Origin: Hyphomicrobiales bacterium
Lineage (GTDB): Bacteria > Pseudomonadota > Alphaproteobacteria > Rhizobiales > Rhizobiaceae
Reading direction: 5' to 3'
Assembly (NCBI GenBank): GCA_900471815.1
Contig: UICE01000003.1
Span: 519,558-583,557 of the forward strand
DNA length: 64,000 nucleotides
Positions 1-20,787 of the stretch are shown in pieces (the first letter of the stretch is position 1; each line of letters opens with the position of its first letter). The notes under the pieces were generated by a model. The model was not told where the DNA came from, did no database searches, and saw only the letters and a list, made by a program, of their open reading frames with translations. The translations under genes and the position numbers were made by a program.

Positions 1-1539
1 GGCAGCAAGGCTACCGTCGATCACGCCATCTTCGGAAATTATTCCAGACAGATACATCTCCGCAACGACTTCAATAATGGCCGAGCCGCAAATGCCGGTA
101 ATACCGCTTGCCGCCACAGCGTCATCAAAGCCCGGCTCGTCGGACCATTGTTCTGTGCCGATCACCCGGAAGCGAGGCTCCAGAGTTACGGGATCTATGC
201 GAACCCTCTCAATGGCGCCGGGTGCTGCACGCTGACCACCAGAAATTTCTGCACCTTCAAAGGCCGGACCAGTCGGCGATGAGGCGGCAACTGTACGATG
301 ACGATTTCCCAGAACGATCTCGGCATTGGTGCCAACGTCAACCAGCAACATCATCTCTTCTTGGCGATGCGGGCCCTCCGCCAGAGTGGCGGCTGCAGCA
401 TCAGCGCCAACGTGCCCAGCGATACATGGCAGCATGTAAACACGGGTTCCGAGATTCATCGGAAGGCCAATGTCAGATGATTTGAGATGCACAGCGCCTG
501 AAACCGCCAGCGCAAATGGCGCTCCACCTAGCTCTGTCGGATCAATGCCGAGGAAAAGATGGTGCATGATCGGATTACCGACGAAAACTGCATCGAGAAT
601 ATCTTCGCGGGCAACTCCGCCTTCGGCGCAGACCCTGTCGATCAGTTCATTTATCGCCCCACGAACGGCGGTGGTCATGCCTTCGCGTCCGTCCGGATTC
701 ATCATGACATATGAGACGCGGCTCATCAGGTCTTCGCCGAAGCGGATTTGCGGATTGGACGTGCCCGCCGATGCGATGGTACGAACTGAAAGAAGCGACG
801 ACAGATGCATGGCAATCGTCGTGGAGCCTATATCACAAGCAATGCCATAGGCTTCATTCTTGAGGCCAGGCCACAAGCCGATCATGGTTGGGCGGGATGT
901 CTCTTCATCATGGTGGATAGCGGCAGTGACGCCCCATTCGCCCTTGCGAAGTATCTTCTGAACATCGGCGAGAAGATAGGTGTCGACGTCTATATTGTGA
1001 AAGCCCCATTCCTTTTCGAGCGCAGCCTTCAGTCGGTCTAGATCGCCAAGCGGTTTGTGCATGTCGGGCTCTTCAACCTCGACATAGCACATGCGGATAG
1101 CGGGATTACGCTCGATCACGCGTGTGTCGACGTCTTTGCGTACGACCTGTGCATTGACTTGAACGTCTTGCGGAACGTCGACAACAAGATCGCCAAGGAT
1201 TGTCGCCGAACAGGACAGGCGCCTGCCTTGTTTCAGGTCCCGCTTTTCCGCGTATCGTTGCTCTTTGGCGCCAAATTCCGAAATATGATCGTTGGAGGAG
1301 GTAATGCCATGTTTGGCAAAGCGGCCCTCCTGTACTTCGACCTGACAACGGCCGCAAATACCGCGACCGCCACAAACACTTTCGACATATACGCCGAGAG
1401 TACGTGCTGCATCGAGGATAGGAGTGCCAACTGCAAAGCGACCACGCTTTCCTGAAGGCATGAAAAGCACGAGTGCTTCTCTGGCGGAGCTTTCAGGTGT
1501 TTTAACGGGTGCGTTCAAGATCGGTACTCCAAAACTCAT
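1..1539 (-). CDS. RamA/RACo-type corrinoid reductive activator (2Fe-2S + ASKHA/DUF4445), 3' partial
   Basis: 513 codons are visible; the C-terminus lies beyond the left edge. The N-terminal domain is a plant-type 2Fe-2S ferredoxin with Cys56, Cys62 and Cys65 in VCGGRGICGRC and the fourth ligand at Cys110 (RLSCSAT). The rest is the ASKHA/DUF4445 domain, starting with the phosphate-binding motif DIGSTT at 236-241. Proteins of this build (RACo, RamA) use ATP to return an inactivated Co(II) corrinoid protein to Co(I), the repair step every corrinoid methyl-transfer system needs. It is the fourth gene of an operon with a pterin methyltransferase and a MetF-like reductase, and a corrinoid protein lies nearby, so that role is a strong inference. 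The ATG at 1539 is the only start upstream of the ferredoxin domain; the Shine-Dalgarno-like run before it lies inside a hairpin. Family call is firm; the exact partner is inferred. Confidence 0.88.
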   Translation of the reverse strand, partial: MSFGVPILNAPVKTPESSAREALVLFMPSGKRGRFAVGTPILDAARTLGVYVESVCGGRGICGRCQVEVQEGRFAKHGITSSNDHISEFGAKEQRYAEKRDLKQGRRLSCSATILGDLVVDVPQDVQVNAQVVRKDVDTRVIERNPAIRMCYVEVEEPDMHKPLGDLDRLKAALEKEWGFHNIDVDTYLLADVQKILRKGEWGVTAAIHHDEETSRPTMIGLWPGLKNEAYGIACDIGSTTIAMHLSSLLSVRTIASAGTSNPQIRFGEDLMSRVSYVMMNPDGREGMTTAVRGAINELIDRVCAEGGVAREDILDAVFVGNPIMHHLFLGIDPTELGGAPFALAVSGAVHLKSSDIGLPMNLGTRVYMLPCIAGHVGADAAAATLAEGPHRQEEMMLLVDVGTNAEIVLGNRHRTVAASSPTGPAFEGAEISGGQRAAPGAIERVRIDPVTLEPRFRVIGTEQWSDEPGFDDAVAASGITGICGSAIIEVVAEMYLSGIISEDGVIDGSLAA

Positions 1540-1540
1540 T

Positions 1541-1569
1541 AGGTGGAGGGCAGGGTGTAGCCTCCACCT
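1541..1569 (-). promoter_or_regulatory. Intergenic hairpin placing an anti-Shine-Dalgarno arm beside the activator start codon
   Basis: A perfect 9-bp inverted repeat lies between the stop of the pterin methyltransferase (1603) and the start of the activator (1539). In the mRNA sense the first arm is AGGTGGAGG, an excellent Shine-Dalgarno sequence, and the second arm CCTCCACCT ends one base before the ATG, with an 11-base loop. Folded, the ribosome-binding sequence is masked. No other Shine-Dalgarno sequence precedes this ATG. It could lower or regulate translation of the activator relative to the genes before it; it has no U-run to act as a terminator. The regulatory role is inference. Confidence 0.55.
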
Positions 1570-1602
1570 ATCTATGCCGGGCCGAGCGTCTGACGCAAAC
1601 GG

Positions 1603-2565: not shown

Positions 2566-2575
2566 GCAGAAATCC

Positions 2576-3478
2576 TTAATTGGCCGCTGAGTTGACTGCT
2601 AGGTAGGGTGTAGCGTTCAAGTTCCATGAACCACGATCAACCAGCCATTCGGATGATTTCTTCAGGCCACCAAACGGAAACACGTGTATCTGCTTGATCG
2701 CGGATGCCGGATTGGCAATCGCGTGCTGCTCGATTGGGCCAACTACACCCTCCGGAGAATGGCTTGTCGCGAGCGCAGTTAGCGAAAGCGCATTCTTCTT
2801 CAAGAAGCTGATTGAATTACCTACACCACACATTGCAGCATATTTAATCAGCGTTGTGATTTTTGCGGGGCCTGCGACGCCCAGATGGACTGGCAAATCC
2901 ACGTCATGCTCGCGCAGCGATTCCGAATAACGGATAAAGCGATCAGCATCAAAACCGAACTGGGTGACTACCCGAATACGAGCACCGGTGCGTTCACCGA
3001 AATTCTTCTTGAGGCGAAGCGCCTCCAAAGCAACAGCTTCGGAAAACTCAGGGCTTCCTTCCGGATGACCGGCAACACCCATTTCCGTAATGCCATATTT
3101 ATCAAAAAAGCCGGTTTCAAGAACCTGCATTGTGGAAGAAAATTCACCGGCCTGACGCTCAAGACCACCGCCAATGACGAGGACATCTGTAACGCCAGCT
3201 TCCTGCGCAGCGCGTTGAATGCGGGTTTCCAAGGCAGCTTTTGTCGAAAGGCGACGCGAAGCGAAATGTGGAACAGGCTTATATCCAAGATCATGAACGC
3301 GCTTTGCAGCCGCTGTGAGCGTATCAACGCTATCGCTGCCCATGTCAGTGATATAAACACGCGTACCCGTCGGGAAAAGGCCCGGAAGGTCTTGGGATTC
3401 GATAGCCTGGCGCGCTGCGACTTCGATTGATGCTGCGATTTTTGTCATTGGCTTCGCTCTCAATTCATGAATTGTCAT
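2576..3478 (-). CDS. Methylenetetrahydrofolate reductase family protein (MetF-like)
   Basis: About 300 residues with the MTHFR TIM-barrel pattern: VLVIGGG near residue 101 and GVAGHPEGSP near 134-143, matching the AG(Y/H)PEGHP loop of MetF. Length fits bacterial MetF. Sitting in an operon with a pterin methyltransferase and a corrinoid activator, it probably oxidises methyl-THF to methylene-THF so that demethylated carbon can enter C1 metabolism, rather than making methyl-THF for methionine. The longest frame begins at a GTG at 3484; I prefer the ATG at 3478, behind AGGCAGGTGG. Either start overlaps the end of the preceding small gene, which suggests translational coupling. Next to housekeeping MetF the similarity looks moderate, so this may be a dedicated paralogue. 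Confidence 0.85.
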   Translation of the reverse strand: MTIHELRAKPMTKIAASIEVAARQAIESQDLPGLFPTGTRVYITDMGSDSVDTLTAAAKRVHDLGYKPVPHFASRRLSTKAALETRIQRAAQEAGVTDVLVIGGGLERQAGEFSSTMQVLETGFFDKYGITEMGVAGHPEGSPEFSEAVALEALRLKKNFGERTGARIRVVTQFGFDADRFIRYSESLREHDVDLPVHLGVAGPAKITTLIKYAAMCGVGNSISFLKKNALSLTALATSHSPEGVVGPIEQHAIANPASAIKQIHVFPFGGLKKSSEWLVDRGSWNLNATPYLAVNSAAN

Positions 3479-3767
3479 GTCCACCTGCCTTTACAAGCGC
3501 CACAAGGCGTTCCCGGTCATAATCATTGTCAATACGGGCGAGGGCCGTATCAGCCTCAGTTTCAAGATCGTCACTGACAGGCACCGGCGTGCCGCGACGC
3601 CATTCGGCCAGATAAGCGTCAGAATCTTTGGCACCTATGCGCATCGCGCACATGTCGATAGCTTCAGTAAAACGAATGGGGAGTTCACGCTTTGCTGCCT
3701 GGCGGCCTTTTTTGACGGTCACTTGGGCGGGTATATCCCGCCAATAAACGACAATGAGATCAGCCAT
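3465..3767 (-). CDS. Small conserved protein of the alphaproteobacterial 'virulence factor' family
   Basis: A 100-residue soluble protein without signal peptide or membrane segment, beginning MADLIVVYWRDIPAQV. The opening and length match a small conserved alphaproteobacterial family usually annotated only as 'virulence factor'. That name says nothing about biochemistry. It is the first gene of the operon that continues with the MetF-like reductase, the pterin methyltransferase and the activator, overlapping the next gene by about 14-20 bases. That position argues for a role in corrinoid or folate methyl transfer. A GGAGGACC sequence eight bases before the ATG supports the start. Function unknown; the family call is from memory. 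Confidence 0.75.
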   Translation of the reverse strand: MADLIVVYWRDIPAQVTVKKGRQAAKRELPIRFTEAIDMCAMRIGAKDSDAYLAEWRRGTPVPVSDDLETEADTALARIDNDYDRERLVALVKAGGHDNS

Positions 3768-5271: not shown

Positions 5272-5895
5272 TCAGTGACCGGCTGCCGCCTTCAGCGCAG
5301 GTACCAGGTCGCCATAGCCGGTAAGCCGACGCTCGTAAGCCAATCCCAAGAACTCTGCGGCTTTTTCAGCTTTTACGCTCAGTTCCGGATTGTCTGTTTG
5401 TGCCATATAGACCATCTTCTTGTAGTTGCCGAAATAGATGTCCCGCAATTCCGGATGGCGATCCAATCCCAAGGGTTTGACCATGAAGGCGTCAAAATGG
5501 CGGGCAAGAAAATCTGTCATGAAAAATGATGTCATGTCATCATCCCATTGTGCGGCAAAGAGGTCGTTACCCGCATAGAATGAAAAGCAGTGAGGGCCAG
5601 CAATCCGTTCCACACCGTGCTTTTCGCATACCTGATCCAGTAAACCGCCCGTTCCGCAGTCAGCATAACCTATGAAGATGTTTGTTATACCTTCGGCCTT
5701 GGCTTTTTGAATAGCTTGGTCAACAGATGGCGCTATTCTGTCAGGGTAGTGGTGATACTCCGCCGGAAGGCATATCAACTGTAAATGATCGAGGCCAAAC
5801 TGTTCGCGAATGGCAAGCACTTCGCGTGCAATCATTCCGCAAGCAATGACCCGTACAGGCTCCGGTTGAATTGTGTGGTTTCGGCTAACATTCAT
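5272..5895 (-). CDS. DUF1638 domain-containing protein
   Basis: A 207-residue soluble protein with the DUF1638 hallmarks: an early IACGMIAREV strand, YADCGTGGLLD in the middle and GPHCFSFYAG around residues 100-110. Three conserved cysteines (in ACGM, DCGT, HCFS) could bind a metal or a thiol substrate. The biochemical role of DUF1638 is not established. The gene lies 5' of the entericidin-like gene and close to the corrinoid protein; my recollection is that DUF1638 genes often sit near corrinoid methyltransferases, which suggests a link with methyl-group or cobalt chemistry. That is guilt by association only. It is separated from the DUF4893 gene by about 70 bases. Confidence 0.8.
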   Translation of the reverse strand: MNVSRNHTIQPEPVRVIACGMIAREVLAIREQFGLDHLQLICLPAEYHHYPDRIAPSVDQAIQKAKAEGITNIFIGYADCGTGGLLDQVCEKHGVERIAGPHCFSFYAGNDLFAAQWDDDMTSFFMTDFLARHFDAFMVKPLGLDRHPELRDIYFGNYKKMVYMAQTDNPELSVKAEKAAEFLGLAYERRLTGYGDLVPALKAAAGH

Positions 5896-6194: not shown

Positions 6195-6893
6195 TTATGC
6201 GCCCGACATCTGATTATGTTTGCGCTTCATGTATGATTTCGCAGTTTCAACGGCAACGGCCGCATCGCGGCAATAGGCATCCGCGCCGACTGCTTTGCCG
6301 AACTCTTCATTAAGCGGTGCACCGCCGACGAGTATCACATAGTCGTCCCGAATGCCTTTTTCCTTCATCGTGTCGATGACGACCTTCATATACGGCATTG
6401 TCGTGGTCAAAAGCGCCGACATGCCAAGGATATCGGGTTTGTGCTCTTCAATGGCCGCCAGATAATTTTCAACGGGATTATTGATGCCCAGGTCAATCAC
6501 ATCAAACCCTGCGCCTTCCATCATCATGCCAACGAGATTCTTGCCAATGTCATGAATGTCACCCTTAACAGTGCCAATTACCAGCTTGCCCTGCTTGGGC
6601 GCGCCGGTTGCAGCAAGGAGAGGGCGGAGGATGAACATGCCTGCTTTCATCGCATTGGCTGACAGCAAAACTTCCGGCACGAAGAGGATACCATCGCGGA
6701 AATCTTCGCCGACGATACGCATTCCCTCCACCAGCGCTTCAGTTAGGACCCTATAGGGCACCCAACCGCGTTCAAGCAGAATGTTTGTGCCTTCTTCGAT
6801 CTCTTCCTTGAGGCCGTCATACAGATCATCGTGCATTTGCTCGACGAGTTCTTCGTCTGAAAGCTCCGAAAGAATGATTTCATCGTCGGCCAT
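6195..6893 (-). CDS. Corrinoid protein, MttC/MtaC-like methyl carrier
   Basis: A 232-residue two-domain protein: an N-terminal helical B12-binding cap (about 10-95) and a Rossmann-like cobalamin-binding domain with the base-off signature DIHDIG (Asp112, His114, Gly117), followed by GAGFDVIDLGIN and a C-terminal GGAPLNEEF motif. This matches MttC, MtbC, MtaC and the cobalamin module of MetH. It carries the corrinoid that takes a methyl group from an MttB enzyme and hands it to the pterin methyltransferase. It is the only corrinoid protein seen here, so it probably serves both MttB proteins. The first 35 residues are strikingly acidic, in contrast to the Arg/Gly tails of its likely partners. 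It diverges from the first mttB gene across a 245-base control region. Confidence 0.93.
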   Translation of the reverse strand: MADDEIILSELSDEELVEQMHDDLYDGLKEEIEEGTNILLERGWVPYRVLTEALVEGMRIVGEDFRDGILFVPEVLLSANAMKAGMFILRPLLAATGAPKQGKLVIGTVKGDIHDIGKNLVGMMMEGAGFDVIDLGINNPVENYLAAIEEHKPDILGMSALLTTTMPYMKVVIDTMKEKGIRDDYVILVGGAPLNEEFGKAVGADAYCRDAAVAVETAKSYMKRKHNQMSGA

Positions 6894-7138: not shown

Positions 7139-8728
7139 ATGAGTGAGGATACGTCAGTTGATGCTTCCGCTGAGGCGGAAACAGGCGGTGGTGTTCGCCG
7201 CGGTCGTGGCGCAGGGGCTGGAGCTGCCGCGCGCCGTGCCGCACGGTCTGGTGGCGGGCCTGGAAAATCACTGACTTATATTACCCGCAAGATAAATACC
7301 TATGAGGTGCTGGACGAGGAAGGTTTGGCGATTATCGAAGCCAATGCCGACACAGTGCTGGAAGAGATCGGTATTGAGTTTCGCGATGACGCAGAGGCCC
7401 TCGCACTGTGGAAAGAGGCTGGCGCTGATGTCAAAGGCGAGCGGGTTCATTTTCCAAAAGGTTTGCCACGCTCACTTTTGAAAACAGCGCCTTCAGTTTA
7501 TACGCAAAATGCGCGCAATCCGGAGCGGTCGGTCCAGATTGGTGGGAAAGCGACAGTTTTTGCCCCTGTATACGGTCCGCCTTTCGTTCGCGACCTCGAT
7601 GGCAATCGTCGCTATGCGACCATTGCCGACTTTCAGAATTTCGTGAAGCTCGCCTATATGGCCCCCTCGATCCATCACTCGGGCGGTACAGTCTGTGAGC
7701 CGGTGGATGTGCCTGTAAACAAGCGCCATCTTGATATGATCTATGCTCATATCAAATATTCCGACAAACCATTTATGGGATCTGTCACTGCACCCGAGCG
7801 GGCTGAAGATACAATTTCCATGTGCAAACTTGTGTTTGGTGAAGATTATCTTGACCAGAATACAGTGCTGACCAGCCTTATCAACGCAAATTCACCGATG
7901 GTTTTCGATGAGACGATGTTGGGCGCATTGAAAGTATATGCACGCAACAATCAGGCCTGCATCGTCACGCCATTCATTCTTGCGGGCGCAATGAGCCCGG
8001 TTACCGTGGCTGGGACGCTGACGCAGGTTCTGGCCGAGGTTCTGGCGGGGGCGTCGTTTACTCAGTTGATTCGTCCAGGCGCTCCGGTCATTTTCGGTAC
8101 TTTTGCTTCATCTATCTCCATGCAATCGGGAGCACCGACATTTGGCACTCCTGAGCCATCGCTTGTGTCATACGGCGCTGCGCAACTTGCACGCCGGCTC
8201 GGATTGCCGTTCCGCACGGGTGGTTCGCTTTGCGCATCAAAGGTTTCCGATGCTCAGGCGGCCTATGAAAGTGCAAACACTTTGAATTCGACGCTGCTGG
8301 CGGGTACAAACTTTGTGCTGCACGCCGCTGGTTGGCTCGAAGGCGGATTAGTATCCTCTTACGAGAAGTTTATGATGGATATTGACCAGCTCGGCATGGC
8401 CCAGAAAATCGCCGAAGGCGTCGATCTTTCCGAAAACGGCCAAGCTATGGATGCCATCAGGCAGGTTGGGCCCGGCAGCCACTATCTCGGCTGCGACCAT
8501 ACACAGGCCAATTTCCAAACAGCCTTTTATCGTTCGAACATTGCTGACAACAATTCCTATGAGCAATGGCTTGCTGAGGGTGAAAAGCGTGCCGACCAGC
8601 GCGCCAACGAACTTGCCCGCCGTTGGCTGGAGACTTACGAGGCGCCGTATCTTGATCCGGCAATCGATGAATCGCTCAAAGAGTTTATTGCCAAGAAAAA
8701 GGCATCGATGCCCGACGCATTCACCTGA
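7139..8728 (+). CDS. MttB-family trimethylamine/betaine:corrinoid methyltransferase, non-pyrrolysine (copy 1)
   Basis: A 529-residue member of the trimethylamine methyltransferase superfamily: residues from about 50 on match the MttB barrel, with ILAGAMSPVTVAG, SGAPTFGTPEPSL and a C-terminal GPGSHYLGCDHTQ segment. The frame is uninterrupted and there is no in-frame TAG, so the pyrrolysine of methanogen MttB is absent; such members (MtgB, MtpB, MtcB) demethylate glycine betaine, proline betaine or carnitine. Residues 18-48 are a Gly/Ala/Arg-rich extension (VRRGRGAGAGAAARR) not needed for the barrel. It diverges from the corrinoid protein gene and precedes a ferredoxin-like gene. A glycine betaine-type quaternary amine is the most likely substrate because a betaine importer and a dimethylglycine dehydrogenase lie in the same region, but the substrate cannot be read from the sequence. 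Confidence 0.9.
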   Translation: MSEDTSVDASAEAETGGGVRRGRGAGAGAAARRAARSGGGPGKSLTYITRKINTYEVLDEEGLAIIEANADTVLEEIGIEFRDDAEALALWKEAGADVKGERVHFPKGLPRSLLKTAPSVYTQNARNPERSVQIGGKATVFAPVYGPPFVRDLDGNRRYATIADFQNFVKLAYMAPSIHHSGGTVCEPVDVPVNKRHLDMIYAHIKYSDKPFMGSVTAPERAEDTISMCKLVFGEDYLDQNTVLTSLINANSPMVFDETMLGALKVYARNNQACIVTPFILAGAMSPVTVAGTLTQVLAEVLAGASFTQLIRPGAPVIFGTFASSISMQSGAPTFGTPEPSLVSYGAAQLARRLGLPFRTGGSLCASKVSDAQAAYESANTLNSTLLAGTNFVLHAAGWLEGGLVSSYEKFMMDIDQLGMAQKIAEGVDLSENGQAMDAIRQVGPGSHYLGCDHTQANFQTAFYRSNIADNNSYEQWLAEGEKRADQRANELARRWLETYEAPYLDPAIDESLKEFIAKKKASMPDAFT

Positions 8729-8817: not shown

Positions 8818-9492
8818 ATGACTGCTGACATGAAGTTGGATTGGATTGCTGCGGAACTAAGGCCTTTTGGCCTTGTTCCGCGCGGTAGTTTTATGTTTGA
8901 TGCCAAGACACCGGCGCCGAGCCTTGGTGAACATACCGATTTCAAAAGTGCGGTAATGATCGGGCATTTCGGCTCGACCATATGGCCGCACTTCGGTCAA
9001 TGGCGGCAGTTGCAGTCAAATATGGCTGATCCGCTGGATAGTTGGTCAAAGGAAATACTAAACAAAGTCGCCACGCGTGTGGGGGCCTTTGCCGTTTTCC
9101 CTTCCGACCAGCCGTATCAGCCATTCCAGGAGTGGGCAAAGCGCGCTGAAGGGCTTTCCGCTTCTCCGCTCGGGTTGCTGATTCATCCCCAATATGGACT
9201 GTGGCAGGCGTTTAGAGGTGCGTTACTGTTTGATAGCGCTCTCGAGCCTTCGCAACTGTCTCCAACCATTCATCCATGTGATGTCTGTTTGAATAAACCG
9301 TGTCTATCAGCCTGTCCTGTTCAAGCTTTTGACGGGATCGGCTTTGCGGTGGATCGCTGCCGGGACCATCTTTGGACTGAGGGTTTCGAATGCATGGATA
9401 GAGGATGCAAAGCGAGGCTGGCATGCCCCGTTGGACGGGAACACGCATATGTATCCGATCAGCAGCGCTTTCACATGGCCGCGTTTGCGTAG
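8818..9492 (+). CDS. Ferredoxin-like iron-sulfur protein of the methyl-transfer locus
   Basis: A 224-residue soluble protein. The first 150 residues have no motif I recognise, although the layout recalls the QueG/RdhA-type reductases, which end in ferredoxin modules. The C-terminal third carries two cysteine groups: Cys154, 157, 162, 166 (CDVCLNKPCLSACPVQA) and Cys181, 192, 197, 203, enough for one or two [4Fe-4S] clusters. It lies 89 bases after the first MttB gene on the same strand and converges on bmt. A low-potential iron-sulfur protein here could pass electrons to the reductive activator or directly to the Co(II) corrinoid protein. That role is inference. Start at 8818 is preceded by a weak purine run; 8830 is an alternative. 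Confidence 0.78.
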   Translation: MTADMKLDWIAAELRPFGLVPRGSFMFDAKTPAPSLGEHTDFKSAVMIGHFGSTIWPHFGQWRQLQSNMADPLDSWSKEILNKVATRVGAFAVFPSDQPYQPFQEWAKRAEGLSASPLGLLIHPQYGLWQAFRGALLFDSALEPSQLSPTIHPCDVCLNKPCLSACPVQAFDGIGFAVDRCRDHLWTEGFECMDRGCKARLACPVGREHAYVSDQQRFHMAAFA

Positions 9493-12588: not shown

Positions 12589-13356
12589 ATGACTTTGGTG
12601 GCGGCTTTGCCGATGTATGATTGGCCGGAACGACGCGTGGAAGTGGATGCGCAATGGTCCCTCTTGCGTGACATTCTTCGCGCAGAAGGCTTTGATGCAC
12701 CGGATCACCTGACAAGACGCAACGCCGACCTGCCTGCGGTTCCCGGGAGCATTAGAGATGCTGCAGGCAATATTATCGCCCCAGACCCGGCGACGTTGCC
12801 GCCAGATGAACTCGATCTTCCCACGCTTTGGCGTCATCCCGCTCTTTTATTCGCGCAGACCTGTTGGGGACCGATGGAGCTCGGGCTGCAACCACATGTC
12901 CGGCTTGTGGGACAGGACGACTACTCCGGCACAGAAGGCGGCAAGGAAGCGTTTTATTCCAGTCCGATTGTAATGAGGCGCGGTGAGGGTGTTGCCATAG
13001 CTGCTCCCCCCGACGGAAAGCCCCATCTGCCTTTGGATACAATCAGGCAAAAACGTCTCGCGTTTAACAGCCCCGATTCCATGTCTGGATATCTTTCTCT
13101 GAAGCGCGACCTTGAGGCTTTAGGCGAGACACTAGGTCTCTTCATTAGTCATTCCGAAACGGGTGGGCACCGGAAATCTATTAAGGCCGTAGCAACCGGT
13201 CGTGCGGACGTTGCTGCCATAGATTGCAAATCATGGGAGTTGGCCCAGCGCTATGACGAGGCGGCCAGTGCTCTTGTCGTTGTTGGTTGGACAGGCAGGC
13301 GCAAAGGCCTGCCTTTCATTTCATCGCGGGAATTACCCGCGCATCTTTTCACCTGA
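12589..13356 (+). CDS. PhnD/SsuA-type substrate-binding domain protein, no signal peptide
   Basis: A 255-residue protein resembling the PhnD/transferrin-like periplasmic binding fold, including RLAFNSPDSMSGYLSL and VATGRADVAAID, which match the hinge regions of PhnD family proteins. Unlike transport PhnD proteins it starts MTLVAALPMYDW with no signal peptide or lipobox, so it is probably cytosolic and may be a sensor or an orphan binding protein. It follows the desaturase gene closely. Its 3' end overlaps the convergent dimethylglycine dehydrogenase gene by 24 bases. No ABC permease is adjacent. Ligand unknown. Confidence 0.75.
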   Translation: MTLVAALPMYDWPERRVEVDAQWSLLRDILRAEGFDAPDHLTRRNADLPAVPGSIRDAAGNIIAPDPATLPPDELDLPTLWRHPALLFAQTCWGPMELGLQPHVRLVGQDDYSGTEGGKEAFYSSPIVMRRGEGVAIAAPPDGKPHLPLDTIRQKRLAFNSPDSMSGYLSLKRDLEALGETLGLFISHSETGGHRKSIKAVATGRADVAAIDCKSWELAQRYDEAASALVVVGWTGRRKGLPFISSRELPAHLFT

Positions 13357-15909
13357 TGGGTCGAATGGTGGCTCGATATTGATCCGGGCGGCTCTCCGGC
13401 GTCCAAGGATTTCCACTTCGAACAAGCCCTGGTCCTCATTTGCAGCAAGTTCTGCAGGCACATATCCCTGTGCCATGGAATGCCCTACATAGTGGGCATA
13501 GCCGCCGGATGTTACCCAGCCAACCACACGCCATTCGCCTTGTACGGCACCAATGTCTCCAGCATTGGCGACAACTTCACCTTCCTTATTGAAGCGCGGA
13601 GCACCGACGCCATGGCTGGCCTGAACGACACCGTAATCCTTGGAGACTTTTGCCCAAATGGGTTCATCGCCCATGACATCTGCTGCATCATCACTTGATG
13701 GTACATCAATGATAAGCGAGACACGGCGTAACTTCGTGCTGGTACCAGCATCGAAGTCTGCTTTTTCTCGCATTGCCATTTCCCTGCCAATGAAATCATT
13801 CTTGGAGAGCTTGACGAAGCGATCCATTGAACCCTCATAGGGACCGTAGATCGGCCGCAGTTCGCGATACCATGTCGGGAAATTCTTTTCGAGCCGCATG
13901 GAGAGCAGGGCGCGCATACCGAAATCGACAATATCATATTCAGCGCCAGCATCCTTGATCGCCTTGTAGACCAGCCTTTGATAGGCTGGTTCCATCCATA
14001 TTTCGTAGCCAAGGTCGCCCGTATAGGAAATGCGGTTTACCCTGCATGGCGCTCCCCCAACGGCCATCTCCCGATAATCCATAAAGCGAAACGCAGCATT
14101 GGACACATCTTCATCAACAAGTTTGGCGAGAACATCGCGTGCTTTCGGCCCTGCAATCGACAAGCCGACCAATGTTTGATCAAAACGATGAATAGTAACG
14201 GAACCGTCTTTTGGCTGCTGCTTTTGGAACCAGCGCATGTGATAACGCTGTGCCGCTGATGAACCCCATATAACAAAGCGCTCGTCATCTGCCTTTGCAA
14301 TCGTAAAGTCGCCGATAAGCTTGCCTTCGTGATTGAGCATCGGTGTCAGGACAAGGCGTGCCTTTTTCGGCATTGTGTTGGTCATCAACCGGGAAAGAAA
14401 GGCTTCCGCTCCGATGCCTGTAACCTCGTACTTAGCGAAGTTGGCAATTTCGGTAACGCCTACACGCTCACGCGTTGCCCGCACCTCTTTGCCAATATAC
14501 TCGAAATCGTTGGAGCGGTGGTAGGAAACGATGTCCTTCGCTTCTGTGCCTTTGGGTGCAAACCAGAGCGGTGTTTCCAGACCCCAGGAATCACCCATCA
14601 CGGCATTTTGCGAGAGCATCGTTTCATAGAGCGGTGTGGTTTGTTGAGGCCGCGCGGCTGGTAGCTCTTCGTTGGGAAATCGTATGGAAAAACGGCGAGA
14701 ATAATTCTCGCGAACCTTGGCGTTGGTATAACGCAAGGTTGCCCATTCACCGAACCGAGCGACATCCATACCCCAAACATCAAATCCGGGCTCGCCATGC
14801 ACCATCCAGTTGGAGAGTGCCAGACCAACGCCACCGCCCTGACTGAAACCGGCCATGACAGCACATGCGGTCCAATAATTGGTCAGTCCAGGGACAGGCC
14901 CCACCAGGGGATTGCCGTCTGGTGCAAAAGTGAACGGCCCATTGATAATTTGTTTTATTCCAGCCTTTTCAATGCCTGGAAAATGCTTGAACCCGACTTC
15001 CAAGGAAGGGGCGATACGATCAATATCCGGCGCAAGCAGTTCGTGACCAAAATCCCAAGGCGTATTGACCGGGGACCATGGCTTCGCGGCCTTTTCATAG
15101 GTGCCAAGCAGAATGCCATTGCGTTCCTGCCGCGTATAGATTTCACCTTTGAAATCCATGACGCCAATGAGCTCGCGACCGGTACTCTGGTTGAATTCCA
15201 TGACCTCCGGAACATCTTCGGTCAGGAGATACATATGTTCCATGGCGAGAACGGGCAGTTCCAGTCCGACCATACGACCCACTTCACGGGCCCAAAGACC
15301 GCCGCAATTAACGACATGTTCGGCTTTTACCGTTCCTTGCTCGGTAATCACGTTCCATGTGCCATCAACCTCCTGCGTTAATTCGACGACGCGATTACGC
15401 AGCGATATTTCAGCTCCGAGTTTCCGTGCAGCCTTGGCATAGGCGTGTGTTGTTCCAGATGGATCAAGATGACCCTCGACCGGATCCCACATGGCGCCGA
15501 CAAAGTTGCTTTCGTCCATTAACGGGAACATGGCTTTGGCTTCGGACGGGGTGATCAGTTCGGTATCCATGCCAAGGTAGCGACCTCGTGCATGCGCTAG
15601 CCGCAAAAAATCCATGCGTTCCGGGCTGTCGGCCATCATGACGCCGCCAGTTAAATGCAAGCCGCATGATTGACCGGAAAGCTCTTCAATTTCCTTGTAA
15701 AGGCTGACCGTATAAGCCTGCAGCTTGGCTACATTTGGATCGCCATTAAGTGTGTGAAAGCCGCCGGCAGCATGCCATGAGGAACCCGATGTCAACTCTG
15801 AGCGCTCGATCAGCAAGACATCAGTCCAGCCAGCACGAGCAAGATGGTAAAGGACGGAACATCCGACAACGCCGCCGCCGATGACAACTGCTTTAACGTG
15901 CGATTTCAT
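13333..15909 (-). CDS. Dimethylglycine dehydrogenase-like FAD and tetrahydrofolate enzyme
   Basis: An 858-residue protein with an N-terminal FAD-dependent DAO domain (VIGGGVVGCSVLYHLA at 9-24), a central linker domain and a C-terminal GcvT-type folate domain, the architecture of dimethylglycine and sarcosine dehydrogenases. His46 in SSWHAAG sits where these enzymes attach FAD covalently. The expected reaction is oxidative demethylation of dimethylglycine to sarcosine with the one-carbon unit captured as methylene-THF. It is the last gene of the minus-strand set after the second MttB, 59 bases downstream of it. It thus takes over the product of betaine demethylation. Sarcosine as substrate is the main alternative. 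Confidence 0.88.
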   Translation of the reverse strand: MKSHVKAVVIGGGVVGCSVLYHLARAGWTDVLLIERSELTSGSSWHAAGGFHTLNGDPNVAKLQAYTVSLYKEIEELSGQSCGLHLTGGVMMADSPERMDFLRLAHARGRYLGMDTELITPSEAKAMFPLMDESNFVGAMWDPVEGHLDPSGTTHAYAKAARKLGAEISLRNRVVELTQEVDGTWNVITEQGTVKAEHVVNCGGLWAREVGRMVGLELPVLAMEHMYLLTEDVPEVMEFNQSTGRELIGVMDFKGEIYTRQERNGILLGTYEKAAKPWSPVNTPWDFGHELLAPDIDRIAPSLEVGFKHFPGIEKAGIKQIINGPFTFAPDGNPLVGPVPGLTNYWTACAVMAGFSQGGGVGLALSNWMVHGEPGFDVWGMDVARFGEWATLRYTNAKVRENYSRRFSIRFPNEELPAARPQQTTPLYETMLSQNAVMGDSWGLETPLWFAPKGTEAKDIVSYHRSNDFEYIGKEVRATRERVGVTEIANFAKYEVTGIGAEAFLSRLMTNTMPKKARLVLTPMLNHEGKLIGDFTIAKADDERFVIWGSSAAQRYHMRWFQKQQPKDGSVTIHRFDQTLVGLSIAGPKARDVLAKLVDEDVSNAAFRFMDYREMAVGGAPCRVNRISYTGDLGYEIWMEPAYQRLVYKAIKDAGAEYDIVDFGMRALLSMRLEKNFPTWYRELRPIYGPYEGSMDRFVKLSKNDFIGREMAMREKADFDAGTSTKLRRVSLIIDVPSSDDAADVMGDEPIWAKVSKDYGVVQASHGVGAPRFNKEGEVVANAGDIGAVQGEWRVVGWVTSGGYAHYVGHSMAQGYVPAELAANEDQGLFEVEILGRRRAARINIEPPFDPSGEKMRG

Positions 15910-15968: not shown

Positions 15969-17549
15969 TTAGAAGTCGGTTGGAGCGCCGCCTTCAGACT
16001 TTCGTTTGGCTACGAAAGCATCAATTTCTTCTTCGATAGCCGGGTTGATCGCAGGTTTGACATAGGTTGCGAGCCGCTCTTTCCAGACCCGGTTTGCGCG
16101 CTCGATCGCTGTGGGGGATCCAGCTTCCTGCCAACTCTCGTAATTGCGCCAATCAGAGATGATTGGAGCATAGAAGGCTGTTTTGTAGCGCGATTGCGTG
16201 TGCGCCGTGCCAAAGAAATGTCCGCCGGGTCCAACATCGCGCATAGCTTCGACGCCAAGCGCATCGTCAGACAGATCAAGCGGGGTCAGAAATTCCGCCA
16301 CCATTTGCAAGAGGTCGAAATCCAGGATCATTTTTTCGTAGGAGCAGCACAACCCGCCCTCGAGCCAGCCTGCTGAATGCAGCATGAAATTCGCGCCGCC
16401 TTGAATGGCTCCCCAAAGCGAAAAAACCGACTCATAGGCTGCCTGTGCATCGACCGTATTGGCCGCGCAAACATTGGAGGTGCGATAAGGAATGCCGTAG
16501 CGGCGGGCCAGTTGGCCGCCGACCATCTGCGCTTTCATGTATTCAGGTGTACCGAAGGCAGGAGCTCCGGATTTCATATCGACATTGGAGGTAAATCCTC
16601 CATAGCCGACAGGAGCGCCCTTCTTGACCATTTGAGTGAAAGAAATTCCCGCTAATGCTTCTGCATTTTGCTGCACCAATGCGCCGGCAATGGTAACCGG
16701 AGCCATTGCTCCGGCAAGTGTGAACGGTGTTACAATAACGATCTGACCGTTACCAGACATCTGGATGATGCCTTCCATCATCGGGATATCCAGTTTAAGC
16801 GGGGAGTTGGTATTGATAATCGTGTAGCAGGAGGCTTCCTCCTGTAGTTGTTCACGGCTGATGCCACGAGCGATCCGTGCAATCTCTATTCCGTCTTCAT
16901 TGCGTTCCTTACCGAGCGAATAAATATGGAATGGTTTATCTGTGAGCGTCGCAAGATCGCGGATGCATTCCAGGTGTCGCACAGACGGATGGATATCAAT
17001 GGGTTCGACCGGATAACCACCCGTCGCATTGATGATATTATGCATCTGCGCCAGTTTGAGGAAATTGCGGAAATCCGCTTGATTGCCCGAGCGCCTGCCA
17101 CTGTCTGTATCAGAACAATTTGGTGCTGAACCCATTTGTGCAAAAATAAGGTTATTGCCGCCAAAACGGACATTATGCGCCGGATTGCGCGCGTGCAGTG
17201 TGAATTCGGATGGCGCATGTCCCACATATTCAAGGATCATATCCTTGTCGAAATGGACGCGTGCAGTGCCGGGGCGCACGTCAGCACCGGCCTTCTTCAT
17301 GATTTCCCGGGCACCATCATGCAGAACGTCAACGCCAATCTCTTGCAAGACTCTCAGCGAAGCATTGTGTATCGATTCCAGCTCATCATCGGAGACCACT
17401 TTGGTCGGTGTCAGAGGAATTCTAAGCTGACGAGGGGGCGGCTGGTCGAAAGCGCCGCTTTCAATTCTGCGTGGGCGGGATCGGCCTCCGCGTCTACCAT
17501 GATCTCGCGATGAACCAGTGTTTTCGATTTCAATCGCAGGTTCGCTCAT
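15969..17549 (-). CDS. MttB-family betaine/trimethylamine:corrinoid methyltransferase, non-pyrrolysine (copy 2)
   Basis: A 526-residue paralogue of the first MttB, with FTLAGAMAPVTIAGALVQ, MKSGAPAFGTPEYMKAQ and GPGGHFFGTAHTQ in the same order. The frame has no in-frame TAG, so it lacks pyrrolysine. Residues 14-29 form a basic extension (HGRRGGRSRPRR) before the barrel. It lies between the betaine importer genes proXWV and the dimethylglycine dehydrogenase, so glycine betaine is the most economical substrate (MtgB-like activity: betaine plus Co(I) corrinoid to dimethylglycine plus methyl-corrinoid). It has no corrinoid protein of its own; the MttC-like protein at 6195-6893 is the nearest. The two MttB copies clearly differ in sequence, so they may have different substrates. 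Confidence 0.9.
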   Translation of the reverse strand: MSEPAIEIENTGSSRDHGRRGGRSRPRRIESGAFDQPPPRQLRIPLTPTKVVSDDELESIHNASLRVLQEIGVDVLHDGAREIMKKAGADVRPGTARVHFDKDMILEYVGHAPSEFTLHARNPAHNVRFGGNNLIFAQMGSAPNCSDTDSGRRSGNQADFRNFLKLAQMHNIINATGGYPVEPIDIHPSVRHLECIRDLATLTDKPFHIYSLGKERNEDGIEIARIARGISREQLQEEASCYTIINTNSPLKLDIPMMEGIIQMSGNGQIVIVTPFTLAGAMAPVTIAGALVQQNAEALAGISFTQMVKKGAPVGYGGFTSNVDMKSGAPAFGTPEYMKAQMVGGQLARRYGIPYRTSNVCAANTVDAQAAYESVFSLWGAIQGGANFMLHSAGWLEGGLCCSYEKMILDFDLLQMVAEFLTPLDLSDDALGVEAMRDVGPGGHFFGTAHTQSRYKTAFYAPIISDWRNYESWQEAGSPTAIERANRVWKERLATYVKPAINPAIEEEIDAFVAKRKSEGGAPTDF

Positions 17550-17707
17550 AATGCATGCCCTCTATGACACCCTTGAAGGGCGATAGGATCACTATCGCCA
17601 GAGGTGAAAAAAGGATGCGTGGCGTGAGCGACTCCTTGGGCAAAGTAAACGACATTCGATGCTGATAAGGAGCGCTGTGCTTAACAGAGCGATCCTTTGT
17701 AAGCCTA

Positions 17708-18778
17708 TTATTCGGCAGCAGCGGCGGTCAGATGACTGATCGGTGTAACCATTGCCTGAATAAGACTATTCATGCTCAGAACGCCCAGCGACTTACCATT
17801 TTCGTCAACCACGGTAGCGTATTGTTGGTTTGCGTCGGTCATGGTTTTGGCGGCTTCTTCCAGGGTAGTCCCGCTGGCAACCGAGACATGGCCCGCATCT
17901 GCGGGACCGCCGGTAGTTGTCGCAATGGTGTCCACCATGATCACGCGTCCGCGATTAACTTCCTTGACGAAGCTGGAGATATATTCATCGGCAGGCTGAA
18001 GAACGATGTCCTGTCCTGTCCCTTGCTGAATAACCTCGCCATCTCTCAAAATGGCAATACGGTCACCCAGGCGAAGCGCTTCATCAAGATCATGCGTGAT
18101 GAAAACGATGGTCTTCTTGATCTCCTTTTGGAGATCCAGAAGGACAGACTGCATGTCCATGCGGATCAGCGGATCAAGTGCTGAAAATGCTTCGTCCATA
18201 AGCAGGATTGGCGCATCGTTTGTCAGCGCACGTGCAAGCCCGACACGTTGCTGCATACCACCGGAAAGTTGGTTCGGGTAGTTGTCCTCAAAGCCTTTGA
18301 GGCCGACCCGTTCAATCCAACGGCGCGCCTGTTCTTCCTGCTTATCGCGGGAAATACCTTGGATTTCCAAGCCGTAGACGGTGTTGTCAAGAACTGTGCG
18401 GTGGGGCAGCAGTGCAAACTTCTGAAAAACCATCGCAGTCTTGTGCCGGCGAAATTGGCGCAAATCGCTTTCGTTCATCTGGCAGACGTCCGTACCATCG
18501 ATGATAACTTCACCGGCAGTTGGATCAATCAGGCGGTTGATGTGGCGAATGAGAGTGGATTTGCCAGAGCCGGATAGACCCATAACGACCTGAATTCCAC
18601 CCGCGGGCATATCGATATTGATATCGCGGAGGCCAAGCACGTGGTGATGCTTCTCGTTGAGCTCTGTTTTGGTCATGCCGTTTTTTACGGCCTCGACATA
18701 TGCAGATCCGCGCGAGCCAAAAATCTTGTAAAGATTCTTGATCTTAATTCCCGCGCCTTGAATTGTTTGATCAGCCAT
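17708..18778 (-). CDS. proV: Glycine betaine/proline ABC transporter ATP-binding protein
   Basis: About 356 residues from the ATG at 18778; the frame extends 54 codons upstream but this would run through the permease gene. Walker A is MGLSGSGKST, the signature LSGGMQQRVGLARAL, Walker B ILLMDEAFSALD. The C-terminal 80 residues look like a CBS domain, as in ProV/OpuAA, where it senses ionic strength. It overlaps the permease stop by eight bases (18771-18778), so translation is coupled. It energises uptake of betaine or a related quaternary amine for the MttB enzyme 158 bases further on. Choline is a possible alternative substrate. Confidence 0.93.
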   Translation of the reverse strand: MADQTIQGAGIKIKNLYKIFGSRGSAYVEAVKNGMTKTELNEKHHHVLGLRDINIDMPAGGIQVVMGLSGSGKSTLIRHINRLIDPTAGEVIIDGTDVCQMNESDLRQFRRHKTAMVFQKFALLPHRTVLDNTVYGLEIQGISRDKQEEQARRWIERVGLKGFEDNYPNQLSGGMQQRVGLARALTNDAPILLMDEAFSALDPLIRMDMQSVLLDLQKEIKKTIVFITHDLDEALRLGDRIAILRDGEVIQQGTGQDIVLQPADEYISSFVKEVNRGRVIMVDTIATTTGGPADAGHVSVASGTTLEEAAKTMTDANQQYATVVDENGKSLGVLSMNSLIQAMVTPISHLTAAAAE

Positions 18779-19658
18779 GGACGACCTCCTGATGTTTTTG
18801 AAGACGCTTGCCATAGGCCTGACTAACGCGGTCGAAGATGATGGCAATGCCGACAATGGCAAGGCCGTTGAAAAGACCAAGGGAGAAGAATTGTCCATTG
18901 ACAGAACGCAGCACCGGTTGCCCAAGTCCCTGCACGCCAATCATTGAAGCAATGACCACCATGGCGAGCGCCATCATGATCGTTTGATTAATGCCAGCCA
19001 TGATGGTTGGAAGGGCGAGGGGGATCTGTACGTTTTTCAGGCGCTGCCAGCTCGATGAACCAAATGCATCGGCAGCTTCCAACACGTCCTTATCCACAAG
19101 CCGGATACCCAGATTAGTCAGGCGGATCATTGGCGGAATGGCGTAAATCACCACCGCGATAAGTCCGGGAACTTTGCCAATACCGAGCAGCATGACCACC
19201 GGTATCAGGTATACGAAGCTCGGCATTGTCTGCATCACGTCAAGTATTGGATTAACGATTCTCTGGAAACTGTCGGATCGCGCCATGATAATGCCGATAG
19301 GGATGCCAACGACGATGGATACGACTGTTCCAACAAAGATCATTGCGATGGTTTTCATCGCATCGCTCCACATATCGAAATAGCCGATCAGAAGCAGTGT
19401 AAGGATTGTTCCGGCCACGATCTTCCAGTTGCGGCTGGCAAGCCAGGCTATGCCTGCAATGAGCAGTACCATGATGGGCCAAGGCGTGCCTGTCATGAAA
19501 CGTTCTGCTTGAATCAGAAAGTACTGCAGGGGCTCAAAGAATGATTCAATGATGTCGCCATATTCGCGCGTGAAAGCCTTAAAGCCCTCATCCATCGTTT
19601 TTTTCAAATTACGCAGCGTCTCATCATTCATGTTCGGGAATGAGTAGAACCAATCCAT
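18771..19658 (-). CDS. proW: Glycine betaine/proline ABC transporter permease
   Basis: A 295-residue integral membrane protein with an N-terminal cytosolic stretch of about 60 residues, then six or so hydrophobic helices and the EAA-type loop around LVDKDVLEAADAFGSSSWQ that contacts the ATPase. This matches ProW/OpuAB. It forms the membrane channel of the importer, between the binding protein gene proX (125 bases upstream, with a strong hairpin between) and proV. The first line of the protein, MDWFYSFPNMNDETLR, is typical of this family in Rhizobiales. Confidence 0.93.
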   Translation of the reverse strand: MDWFYSFPNMNDETLRNLKKTMDEGFKAFTREYGDIIESFFEPLQYFLIQAERFMTGTPWPIMVLLIAGIAWLASRNWKIVAGTILTLLLIGYFDMWSDAMKTIAMIFVGTVVSIVVGIPIGIIMARSDSFQRIVNPILDVMQTMPSFVYLIPVVMLLGIGKVPGLIAVVIYAIPPMIRLTNLGIRLVDKDVLEAADAFGSSSWQRLKNVQIPLALPTIMAGINQTIMMALAMVVIASMIGVQGLGQPVLRSVNGQFFSLGLFNGLAIVGIAIIFDRVSQAYGKRLQKHQEVVHG

Positions 19659-19751
19659 GCGTTGGTACCCCTTCTAAAGTCAAAAAAAGCCTGGCTTTTT
19701 CATACGACCTTGCTGGCTGAATGCTGAGGCATCCAACCTGATTAAGATTGC

Positions 19752-19777
19752 TTGCGGCGGAGCTTGCTCCGCCGCAA
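19752..19777 (-). other. Intergenic hairpin between proX and proW
   Basis: TTGCGGCGGA and TCCGCCGCAA are perfect 10-bp arms; the six bases between (GCTTGC) can extend the stem to 12 bp. It starts six bases after the proX stop codon and has no U-run. Such hairpins after a binding-protein gene usually protect its mRNA so that it is made in excess over the permease. Confidence 0.7.
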
Positions 19778-19782
19778 TTCAA

Positions 19783-20787
19783 CTATTTAACTGCAGCCTT
19801 GATTTTCTCGGCAGCTTCAGGGGAAACCCACTTCGTCCAGGTTGCCTCGTTGTTCTGCAGGTAATATTTAGCACCGTCTTCGCCAGTGGCCTGATTGTCG
19901 ACCATCCACGCGAGAAGCTTGTTTGTTTCTTCGGTCGAAATCTGACGCTTTTTCAGGTACTCAAAGGCTGGTCCAGCACGTTCAGAGAATTTTTTGGTGA
20001 CGATCGTGTAAATGTCAGCAATCGGCCAACCATTTGGTTTTGGATCCGGGCAATCTGCGATGGAATTGCAGCGGTTCCATTCCTTTTCATCCCATGGAAC
20101 GCCATTGTCCAACTTTACCATCGGATATTTGCCGAGAATGGCTGTCGGACCCCAGTAGTAGCCAAGCCAAGGCTCTTTGCGTTCGTAAGCTTTCGCTATC
20201 GAGCCATCAAGACCGGCTGCTGAGCCTGTGTCGACAAGTGTGAAACCATTCTTGTCGCCCTCATAAGCCTTATAAAAGTTAGCGGTCGTGATCTGGCATG
20301 CCCAGCCTGATGGGCAATTATAGACGGCTCCCTTTTTAGGATCTTCAGGCGAGGGGAACAATTCCGGATGCTTCATCGCGTCGGCGATGGTCTTGATATC
20401 CGGATGAGCATCAGCAAAATATTTGGGTACCCACCAGCTTTCAGTGCCGCCTTCAGTGATGGCTGGCGCTGCATAGACCAGCTTGTTCTCTTTGACAGCT
20501 TTTTCAAGCGGCTCGCGAACAGCATTCAACCAGCCTTCCGGTGCGATATCAGGCTGCCCTTTTTCGATCATGGAGGTAAAGGTCGGCACAGTGTCGCCTG
20601 CAACAAGCTCTGCATCGCAGCCATAGCCTTCGGTCAAGATTATCTTGTCGAGGTTGGCCAAGGCTTCGGCTGACTGCCAGTTCATGTTTGCGATTGTAAC
20701 CGTACCGCAATCTTCGGCTGCTGAAGCTGATCCGGCATAACCGAATAATCCAGCTGCCAATATAGTTGAAGCAAGTAGCTTCTTCAT
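19783..20787 (-). CDS. proX: Glycine betaine ABC transporter substrate-binding protein
   Basis: A 334-residue OpuAC-type periplasmic binding protein with a signal peptide (cleavage after SASA, near residue 23). Aromatic residues expected in a quaternary-amine cage are present (NMNWQSAEA, TESWWVPKYF, YYWGPTAILG). Two Cys-rich segments (NCPSGWAC, RCNSIADC) suggest disulfides. It is the first gene of the proX-proW-proV-MttB-dimethylglycine dehydrogenase set, so transport and catabolism of the same compound are probably coregulated. The 573-base upstream region holds two GCGACAAGG motifs. Betaine is the likely ligand, with choline or proline betaine possible. Confidence 0.92.
   Translation of the reverse strand: MKKLLASTILAAGLFGYAGSASAAEDCGTVTIANMNWQSAEALANLDKIILTEGYGCDAELVAGDTVPTFTSMIEKGQPDIAPEGWLNAVREPLEKAVKENKLVYAAPAITEGGTESWWVPKYFADAHPDIKTIADAMKHPELFPSPEDPKKGAVYNCPSGWACQITTANFYKAYEGDKNGFTLVDTGSAAGLDGSIAKAYERKEPWLGYYWGPTAILGKYPMVKLDNGVPWDEKEWNRCNSIADCPDPKPNGWPIADIYTIVTKKFSERAGPAFEYLKKRQISTEETNKLLAWMVDNQATGEDGAKYYLQNNEATWTKWVSPEAAEKIKAAVK

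What the first reader, a model, noticed from the sequence alone, without database searches (positions are those of the whole stretch)
1..20787. Aerobic corrinoid-dependent quaternary-amine demethylation locus
Within 21 kb lie two non-pyrrolysine MttB proteins, one corrinoid protein, a methyl-THF:corrinoid methyltransferase, a MetF-like reductase, an ASKHA/2Fe-2S activator, a ferredoxin-like protein, a betaine-type importer, a dimethylglycine dehydrogenase and a betaine-homocysteine methyltransferase. The parts are those of anaerobic MtgB systems, but they are embedded in an organism with aerobic-type B12 synthesis. The logic is: import betaine, move one methyl via Co(I) corrinoid to THF, oxidise it, then process dimethylglycine oxidatively. 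Operation under oxygen of a Co(I) pathway would be notable.
Basis: partly seen in the sequence, partly recalled or inferred. Interest (0 to 1): 0.85.

Follow-up and report, generated by a model that had tools for sequence, protein, structure and literature searches.

The report
Betaine-eating, methionine-making vitamin B12 locus
This soil-bacterium locus looks like a member of a recently published vitamin B12 system that strips a methyl group from the osmolyte glycine betaine and also builds methionine; the system is known, but the locus carries a few conserved partner genes whose role is unexplained.

Summary
Mausz et al. 2025 (PMC12478193) showed in aerobic Ruegeria pomeroyi that MtgC and MtgD are needed for both glycine betaine (GBT) use and methionine synthesis (MtgBCDE, with RamA and DUF1638), and reported the S. 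meliloti genes as colocalised with its cob operon. Price et al. 2018 (PMC5764234) had shown the methionine half. The window is a Phyllobacterium-like member.

Corrections: the 'BHMT' is the MetH-type homocysteine module MtgE. The genome also holds full-length MetH and a GbcAB-like monooxygenase pair (below cut-off), so neither methionine synthesis nor GBT demethylation need depend on this locus. MttB1 groups with Desulfitobacterium MtgB and keeps its predicted betaine Tyr; MttB2 does not, and pairs with a DMG dehydrogenase.

Not seen in print in my searches: (a) the 'ferredoxin-like' protein has a predicted CblC/MMACHC fold plus eight invariant Cys; (b) a small PF13769 protein occurs with MtgC in 59 of its 60 genomes; (c) the methyl-THF oxidation slot alternates between MetV+MetF and a divergent MetF2; (d) in a 150-genome sample MtgC is single-copy in 66 of 67 genomes while MttB copies run from 1 to at least 9. 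Functions of (a) and (b) are inference.

The parts
1..1539 (-). RamA-like (RACo/ASKHA, 2Fe-2S) corrinoid activator; runs 566 bases past the window start, 701 aa in all
   Evidence: Pfam RACo middle, linker and C-terminal domains, Fer2; full ORF in L003
1603..2565 (-). MtgD: methyl-THF:corrinoid methyltransferase (MetH module 1 / MeTr type)
   Evidence: PF00809, PRK07535 396 bits over cut-off 259
2576..3484 (-). MetF2: divergent MTHFR-like protein, likely methyl-THF oxidation
   Evidence: PF02219 E 4.5e-8; fills the slot that holds MetV+MetF in most rhizobial relatives
3465..3767 (-). PF13769 'virulence factor' protein, 100 aa; conserved partner of unknown role
   Evidence: with MtgC in 59 of its 60 genomes; within 15 kb of mtgC in 34 of the 36 genomes with both on one contig
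5272..5895 (-). DUF1638 protein; linked to B12 reactivation by mutant fitness in P. inhibens (Price 2018)
   Evidence: PF07796; with MtgC in 60 of its 60 genomes
6195..6893 (-). MtgC: corrinoid protein, hub
   Evidence: PF02607 + PF02310; 74% identity or more in 26 of 142 genomes of the class sample
7139..8728 (+). MttB1: candidate MtgB, glycine betaine:MtgC methyltransferase, non-pyrrolysine
   Evidence: PF06253 786 bits; 4yyc 975 bits, D. hafniense MtgB 2qne 418 bits; tree and residues
8818..9492 (+). CblC/MMACHC-like fold with eight conserved Cys (predicted two [4Fe-4S]); candidate corrinoid reductase or loader
   Evidence: within 10 kb of mtgC in 64 of 69 named contexts
9496..10509 (-). 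MtgE: homocysteine methyltransferase module, filed as 'BHMT'
   Evidence: PRK07534 555 bits; nearest solved structure T. maritima MetH
13333..15909 (-). DMGDH-type flavoprotein (FAD + THF domains)
   Evidence: Pfam; human DMGDH 556 bits against 264 for the bacterial DMG oxidase 1pj5; beside MttB2 orthologues in 17 of 36 contexts
15969..17549 (-). MttB2: non-pyrrolysine MttB of another clade, substrate open
   Evidence: PF06253 665 bits; tree and residue 94
17708..18940 (-). ProV-like ATPase of the importer (start codon probably further inside, as the ORF overlaps ProW)
   Evidence: TIGR01186 365 bits over cut-off
18771..19658 (-). ProW-like permease
19783..20787 (-). ProX/OpuAC substrate-binding protein, DmpX-like
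   Evidence: PF04069; 7yle 228 bits; 8 of 8 DmpX pocket residues kept
25521..25753 (+). Cobalamin riboswitch before the cob gene cluster
   Evidence: Rfam RF00174, 88.1 bits

Best explanation
The locus encodes the aerobic MtgBCDE system: one corrinoid protein (MtgC) serves as a hub. MttB1 (MtgB) moves a methyl group from glycine betaine to Co(I) on MtgC, leaving dimethylglycine. MtgD moves it on to THF, where MetF2 oxidises methyl-THF to methylene-THF; or, when methionine is needed, MtgD runs the other way (methyl-THF to MtgC) and MtgE passes the methyl to homocysteine. RamA (ATP, 2Fe-2S), with DUF1638, restores Co(I). The importer supplies a betaine, and the DMGDH-type enzyme removes a methyl from dimethylglycine onto THF. 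MttB2 feeds a second methylated substrate into the same MtgC. Shown elsewhere: the dual role of MtgC and MtgD (mutants in R. pomeroyi) and the methionine role of MtgCDE, RamA and DUF1638 (P. inhibens). Shown here: the parts, their conserved linkage and co-occurrence. Inferred: all reactions in this organism, the substrates of MttB1, MttB2 and the importer, and the direction of MetF2.
For: Families of each part. Synteny in named relatives. In 150 genomes of the order, 63 of 64 with MttB have MtgC; the exception is a genome 67% complete. MtgC single-copy in 66 of 67 genomes, while 46 of 64 MttB genomes hold two or more MttB. DUF1638 with MtgC in 60 of 60. MttB1 clade plus D. hafniense MtgB, support 1.0; Tyr94 kept in 26 of 27 MttB1 against 0 of 28 MttB2. 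MtgE nearer MetH than BHMT. Published genetics read in PMC12478193 (parts 1-4 of 6) and PMC5764234 (passages and one section).
Against: The genome also has full-length MetH (1763 bits) and a GbcA-like plus GbcB-like gene pair (520 of 670 and 388 of 500 bits needed), so an oxygen-dependent route to DMG is possible and this locus may be redundant. MttB1 has Gly at the place of the docking-predicted aromatic Phe353 and Trp at Ile349 of D. hafniense MtgB. MtgE is within 10 kb in only 4 of 15 full contexts of the wider class sample. No expression or biochemical data here. The MttB tree is rooted at its midpoint, with one reference enzyme.
Confidence: 0.85

Rival explanations
1. MttB2, not MttB1, is the glycine betaine methyltransferase: it sits in one transcription direction with the betaine-type importer and the DMG dehydrogenase, and MttB1 acts on something else or only supports methionine synthesis.
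For: Gene order in the window; DMGDH homologue near MttB2 orthologues in 17 of 36 contexts, 26 of which are at least 19 kb. Asn199, Arg309 and His345 are kept in MttB2.
Against: D. hafniense MtgB groups with MttB1, and Tyr94 is lost in all 28 MttB2; MttB1 scores higher against MtgB (418 against 339 bits).
Confidence: 0.2
2. The locus works mainly as a second, split methionine synthase, and betaine is broken down by the GbcAB-like monooxygenase.
For: MtgC, MtgD, MtgE, RamA and DUF1638 are the P. inhibens methionine set (PMC5764234). A GbcAB-like pair is present.
Against: The genome has full-length MetH, and MttB genes occur with MtgC in 63 of 64 genomes, which a pure methionine synthase would not need. 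The GbcA-like protein is below its family cut-off and may be a stachydrine (Stc2-type) oxygenase (recalled, not tested).
Confidence: 0.15
3. One reading: a direct betaine-homocysteine methyltransferase works beside an imported anaerobic MtgB pathway.
For: NCBIfam names the protein betaine-homocysteine S-methyltransferase.
Against: Closest solved structures are MetH homocysteine domains; Mausz et al. state that the S. meliloti homologue lacks the betaine-binding residues; MtgC fails the anaerobic MtgC cut-offs.
Confidence: 0.05

Closest known systems
MtgBCDE of Ruegeria pomeroyi DSS-3 (and the S. meliloti locus named in the same paper), Mausz et al. 2025, PMC12478193
   Same: MtgB (MttB), MtgC, MtgD, MtgE, MetF2, RamA, DUF1638; dual betaine and methionine role; colocalised with cob genes as reported for S. 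meliloti.
   Different: Here the genome also has full-length MetH; an ABC importer in place of the BCCT transporter OpuD that was induced there; extra conserved genes (CblC-like Fe-S protein, PF13769) not named in the main text.
Split methionine synthase of Phaeobacter inhibens, Price et al. 2018, PMC5764234
   Same: Three split MetH modules plus RamA-like and DUF1638 proteins.
   Different: P. inhibens lacks MetH and depends on the split enzyme; this genome does not lack it. Price et al. noted this puzzle for S. meliloti.
Anaerobic glycine betaine system MtgABC of Desulfitobacterium hafniense
   Same: MttB1 is the closest clade to its MtgB.
   Different: Corrinoid protein below the NCBIfam MtgC cut-offs; methyl-THF step by a MeTr-type MtgD; aerobic setting; linked homocysteine module.
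Human MMACHC (CblC) and its fold relatives QueG and RdhA
   Different: Only 17% identity; sequence match below the Pfam cut-off (18.9 of 27 bits); adds eight Cys, which suggests two [4Fe-4S] clusters as in QueG and RdhA.
DMSP importer DmpXWV, PMC10030565
   Same: Substrate-binding protein keeps 8 of 8 RnDmpX pocket residues, Tyr200 included.
   Different: Sits with a betaine-demethylation operon in a rhizobium; ligand untested.

Membership tests
MtgBCDE (aerobic dual system) | MtgC, MtgD, MtgE, MttB, RamA and DUF1638 all encoded | tested here: met
MtgBCDE (aerobic dual system) | MtgC of the aerobic type rather than the MetH domain or the anaerobic MtgC | tested here: met
   74-85% identity block in 26 of 142 genomes of the class, next-best group 52% or less; below anaerobic MtgC cut-offs. 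No direct comparison with SPO2160 was made.
MtgBCDE (aerobic dual system) | Growth on betaine and methionine synthesis both need MtgC | not testable with these tools
   needs mutants; MetH and a GbcAB-like pair are present
Trimethylamine methyltransferase MttB (pyrrolysine) | In-frame amber codon and TIGR02369 score of 525 or more | tested here: not met
   no stop inside either frame; 284 and 303 bits
Anaerobic glycine betaine corrinoid protein MtgC (NF047996, NF047995) | Score over the curated cut-off | tested here: not met
   214.6 of 370 and 176.6 of 310 bits
Betaine-homocysteine methyltransferase (human type) | Closest to BHMT rather than to MetH homocysteine domains | tested here: not met
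   134 bits to T. maritima MetH, 52 bits to human BHMT
Dimethylglycine dehydrogenase | DAO + FAO_M + GCV_T domains and closest to DMGDH | tested here: met
   sarcosine dehydrogenase not excluded, as no solved SARDH appeared in the list
MMACHC / CblC | Pfam PF16690 over its cut-off | tested here: not met
   18.9 of 27 bits; 12 of 23 orthologues match at E <= 1, best 0.0012
MMACHC / CblC | Same fold | tested here: met
MMACHC / CblC | Binds and processes cobalamin | not testable with these tools
   needs purified protein
DmpX DMSP-binding protein | Eight pocket residues of RnDmpX | tested here: met
   7 of 8 positions show that a betaine binder could share most of them
DmpX DMSP-binding protein | Binds DMSP and not betaine | not testable with these tools
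   needs ITC
Glycine betaine monooxygenase GbcAB (elsewhere in the genome) | Scores over NF058607 and NF058606 cut-offs | tested here: not met
   520 of 670 and 388 of 500 bits

The most novel reading that the evidence does not exclude
The 'ferredoxin-like' protein is a bacterial CblC-type iron-sulfur protein that binds the corrinoid and reduces it to Co(I), or loads it, for MtgC in air. It would be a second, oxygen-era route of corrinoid activation beside RamA, and a bacterial counterpart of the MMACHC that a 2026 paper on human methionine synthase (PMC13376404, passages seen) calls eukaryote-only.
Probability: 0.3. Interest if true: 0.7.

Novelty: new member of a known kind. Interest (0 to 1): 0.42.

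Why it matters
The window confirms that the aerobic B12 betaine-methionine system is a fixed chromosomal block in rhizobia, including strains that also keep MetH. This bears on the open remark of Price et al. 2018 that bacteria such as S. meliloti carry the reactivation proteins although their MetH has its own. The near one-to-one occurrence of a single corrinoid protein with up to at least nine MttB enzymes per genome makes MtgC a common entry for many methylated compounds. Two conserved partners (CblC-like Fe-S protein, PF13769 protein) give named, testable candidates for how Co(I) is kept usable in air.

Tried and rejected
Pyrrolysine MttB: rejected, no stop codon inside either MttB frame and scores far below TIGR02369.

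Locus as the only methionine source: rejected for this genome, full-length MetH present; no MetE C-terminal domain PF01717 found in the own genome at E <= 0.001.

GbcAB absent, so the corrinoid route must be used: I had first looked only for PF00848 (two hits). On checking, one of them with its neighbour is GbcAB-like, below cut-off, so that argument fails and is not made.

Ligand of the importer from sequence: the DmpX pocket is fully kept, but 14 relatives' proteins keep most of it too, differing mainly at Ala153, so DMSP against betaine is undecided.

Context of the CblC-like protein away from mtgC: of 46 genomes with it, 43 have MtgC, but only 22 have the two within 15 kb (26 on one contig), and three lack MtgC. 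Fourteen such distant loci were fetched; no window protein other than a weak ABC-ATPase match lay beside it, and 19 neighbours from 7 of the 14 showed no B12 gene. In the wider class sample it was near mtgC in 1 of 26 contexts. This counts against a strict tie to MtgC.

Fisher tests are not corrected for relatedness of the genomes and are not used as probabilities.

Literature: nine searches in all. No paper with the term PF13769; three with DUF1638. Figures and supplements of the papers were not seen, so the extra genes may be drawn in Fig. 4 of Mausz et al.
Full report
What is there. The window is bases 519558-583557 of contig C12 of a 4.6 Mb genome, 99.98% complete. Its MtgC is 94-97% identical to those of Phyllobacterium species, so I call it Phyllobacterium-like; the strain itself is not named by any tool. 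Families of 19 ORFs in 1-20787 were read against Pfam and NCBIfam. The order on the minus strand is RamA-like activator (running out of the window), MtgD, MetF2, a PF13769 protein whose frame overlaps MetF2, ExoD, DUF4893, DUF1638 and MtgC. On the plus strand, divergent from mtgC, follow MttB1 and the ferredoxin-like protein. Then come MtgE (minus), an Xre-type regulator, a desaturase, a phosphonate-binding-like protein, and, on the minus strand, the DMGDH-type enzyme, MttB2 and ProV, ProW, ProX. A cobalamin riboswitch and a cob gene cluster follow.

It is a known system. I read parts 1-4 of 6 of Mausz et al. 2025, PMC12478193. It reports that in aerobic R. pomeroyi, mtgC and mtgD mutants are methionine auxotrophs and cannot grow on glycine betaine even with methionine, and that two MttB proteins, MetF2, RamA and DUF1638 rise on betaine. 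It states that in S. meliloti mtgBCDE, the two reactivation genes and the cob operon are colocalised, and that of 156 mtgBCD genomes 108 lack MetH. Price et al. 2018, PMC5764234 (passages; one section) showed by mutant fitness that the three split MetH parts, the RamA-like protein and DUF1638 serve methionine synthesis in P. inhibens. The window fits both descriptions.

Corrections to the reading. The protein filed as betaine-homocysteine methyltransferase matches T. maritima MetH (134 bits) much better than human BHMT (52 bits). The corrinoid protein is below both anaerobic MtgC cut-offs. The own genome also has full-length MetH, 1763 bits over the whole model, and no MetE C-terminal domain. 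It also has a GbcA-like protein (520 bits, cut-off 670) next to a GbcB-like one (388, cut-off 500), and a second GbcA-like protein (283 bits). Whether these act on glycine betaine or on another betaine such as stachydrine (recalled) is open. So betaine use and methionine synthesis may both have a second route here.

Conservation. Of 80 named mtgC loci, 69 hold at least 19 kb. With a threshold of 35% identity over 60% of the length, they show RamA in 65, MtgD 65, PF13769 66, DUF1638 67, an MttB 68, the ferredoxin-like protein 64, MtgE 51, MetF2 10. These are the nearest relatives and not independent. In a sample of 142 genomes of the class, 26 have MtgC at 74% identity or more, and 10 of the 26 also show a MetH-type hit in a long frame. 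In the 15 full contexts from that sample the counts are DUF1638 13, PF13769 10, RamA 8, MtgD 8, MttB 8, MtgE 4, ferredoxin-like 1.

Co-occurrence in 150 genomes of the order. MttB 64, MtgC 67, PF13769 60, DUF1638 60, MetH 110. MttB and MtgC share 63; the one MttB genome without MtgC is 67% complete; four have MtgC without MttB at E <= 1e-60. MtgC is single in 66 of 67. MttB counts run from 1 (18 genomes) to 9 (6 genomes; 9 is the scoring cap), 46 of 64 having two or more. PF13769 and MtgC share 59 of 60; DUF1638 and MtgC 60 of 60. MetH is found in 33 of the 67 MtgC genomes. No correction for relatedness was made.

Which MttB is MtgB. From 188 MttB stretches, 80 non-redundant ones of more than 450 aa plus both window proteins and D. 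hafniense MtgB were put in a tree (83 tips); three shorter ones were dropped. The MttB1 group (27) plus one further sequence and D. hafniense MtgB form a clade with support 1.0; the MttB2 group (28) lies elsewhere, in a clade of 32 with support 0.81. The root is the midpoint. Of residues predicted by docking to touch betaine in D. hafniense MtgB (PMC6855144, passages), Asn199, Arg309 and His345 are kept in both groups. Tyr94 is kept in 26 of 27 MttB1 and in 0 of 28 MttB2, which have Ala, Ser or Gly. Against this, Phe353 is Gly in both groups. I therefore predict glycine betaine for MttB1 and a bulkier betaine for MttB2. MttB2 orthologues have a DMGDH homologue in 17 of 36 contexts.

The methyl-THF oxidation slot. 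Between the PF13769 gene and mtgD, 52 of 69 named contexts carry MetV (PF12225) plus MetF, 10 the MetF2 type, and 7 neither; the presence was scored in the whole context, the slot by its size, and the families by hmmscan of 7 proteins. MetF2 and that MetF show no useful BLASTP match. Two unlike reductases thus alternate in one slot, which supports a role in oxidising the methyl group.

The importer. ProX keeps 8 of 8 residues of the DMSP pocket of RnDmpX (pocket from PMC10030565, passages and section 19). DmpX there bound betaine poorly. Ligand here is open.

Verdict. The remaining interest lies in the CblC-like protein, the PF13769 protein, and the retention of MetH.

Noticed in passing
window 3465-3767 (-): A 100-aa PF13769 'virulence factor' protein occurs with MtgC in 59 of its 60 genomes in the order sample; no paper in the library holds the term PF13769, and the word virulence is not in the main text of Mausz et al.
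   Followed up: partly
window 8818-9492 (+): Predicted CblC/MMACHC-fold protein with eight invariant Cys beside MttB1; also in three genomes without MtgC.
   Followed up: partly
L102:14000-15669 and similar loci: MetV+MetF pair of the acetogen kind in most rhizobia in the slot where the window has a divergent MetF2.
   Followed up: partly
order sample: Seven MtgC genomes lack DUF1638; six of them have MetH (the seventh is 61% complete). The six come from only two families, so this is a hint only that DUF1638 serves the methionine role.
   Followed up: no
L232 (C12:115155) and L233 (C12:885656): GbcAB-like pair and a second GbcA-like protein next to a ThiO/SoxB-like flavoprotein in the own genome, below family cut-offs.
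   Followed up: partly
G177, G178, G179, G184, G219, G253: Rhizobial genomes with at least nine MttB paralogues and one MtgC; substrates unknown. One S. meliloti pSymA paralogue (L211) sits with an ABC importer and an aminopeptidase P family protein.
   Followed up: no
order sample: In many genomes of the order the homocysteine domain of MetH is a separate frame of about 340-400 aa beside a MetH of about 900 aa.
   Followed up: no
window 12589-13356 (+): Soluble phosphonate-binding-like protein between a desaturase and the DMGDH gene, conserved in a few Phyllobacterium and Mesorhizobium loci.
   Followed up: no
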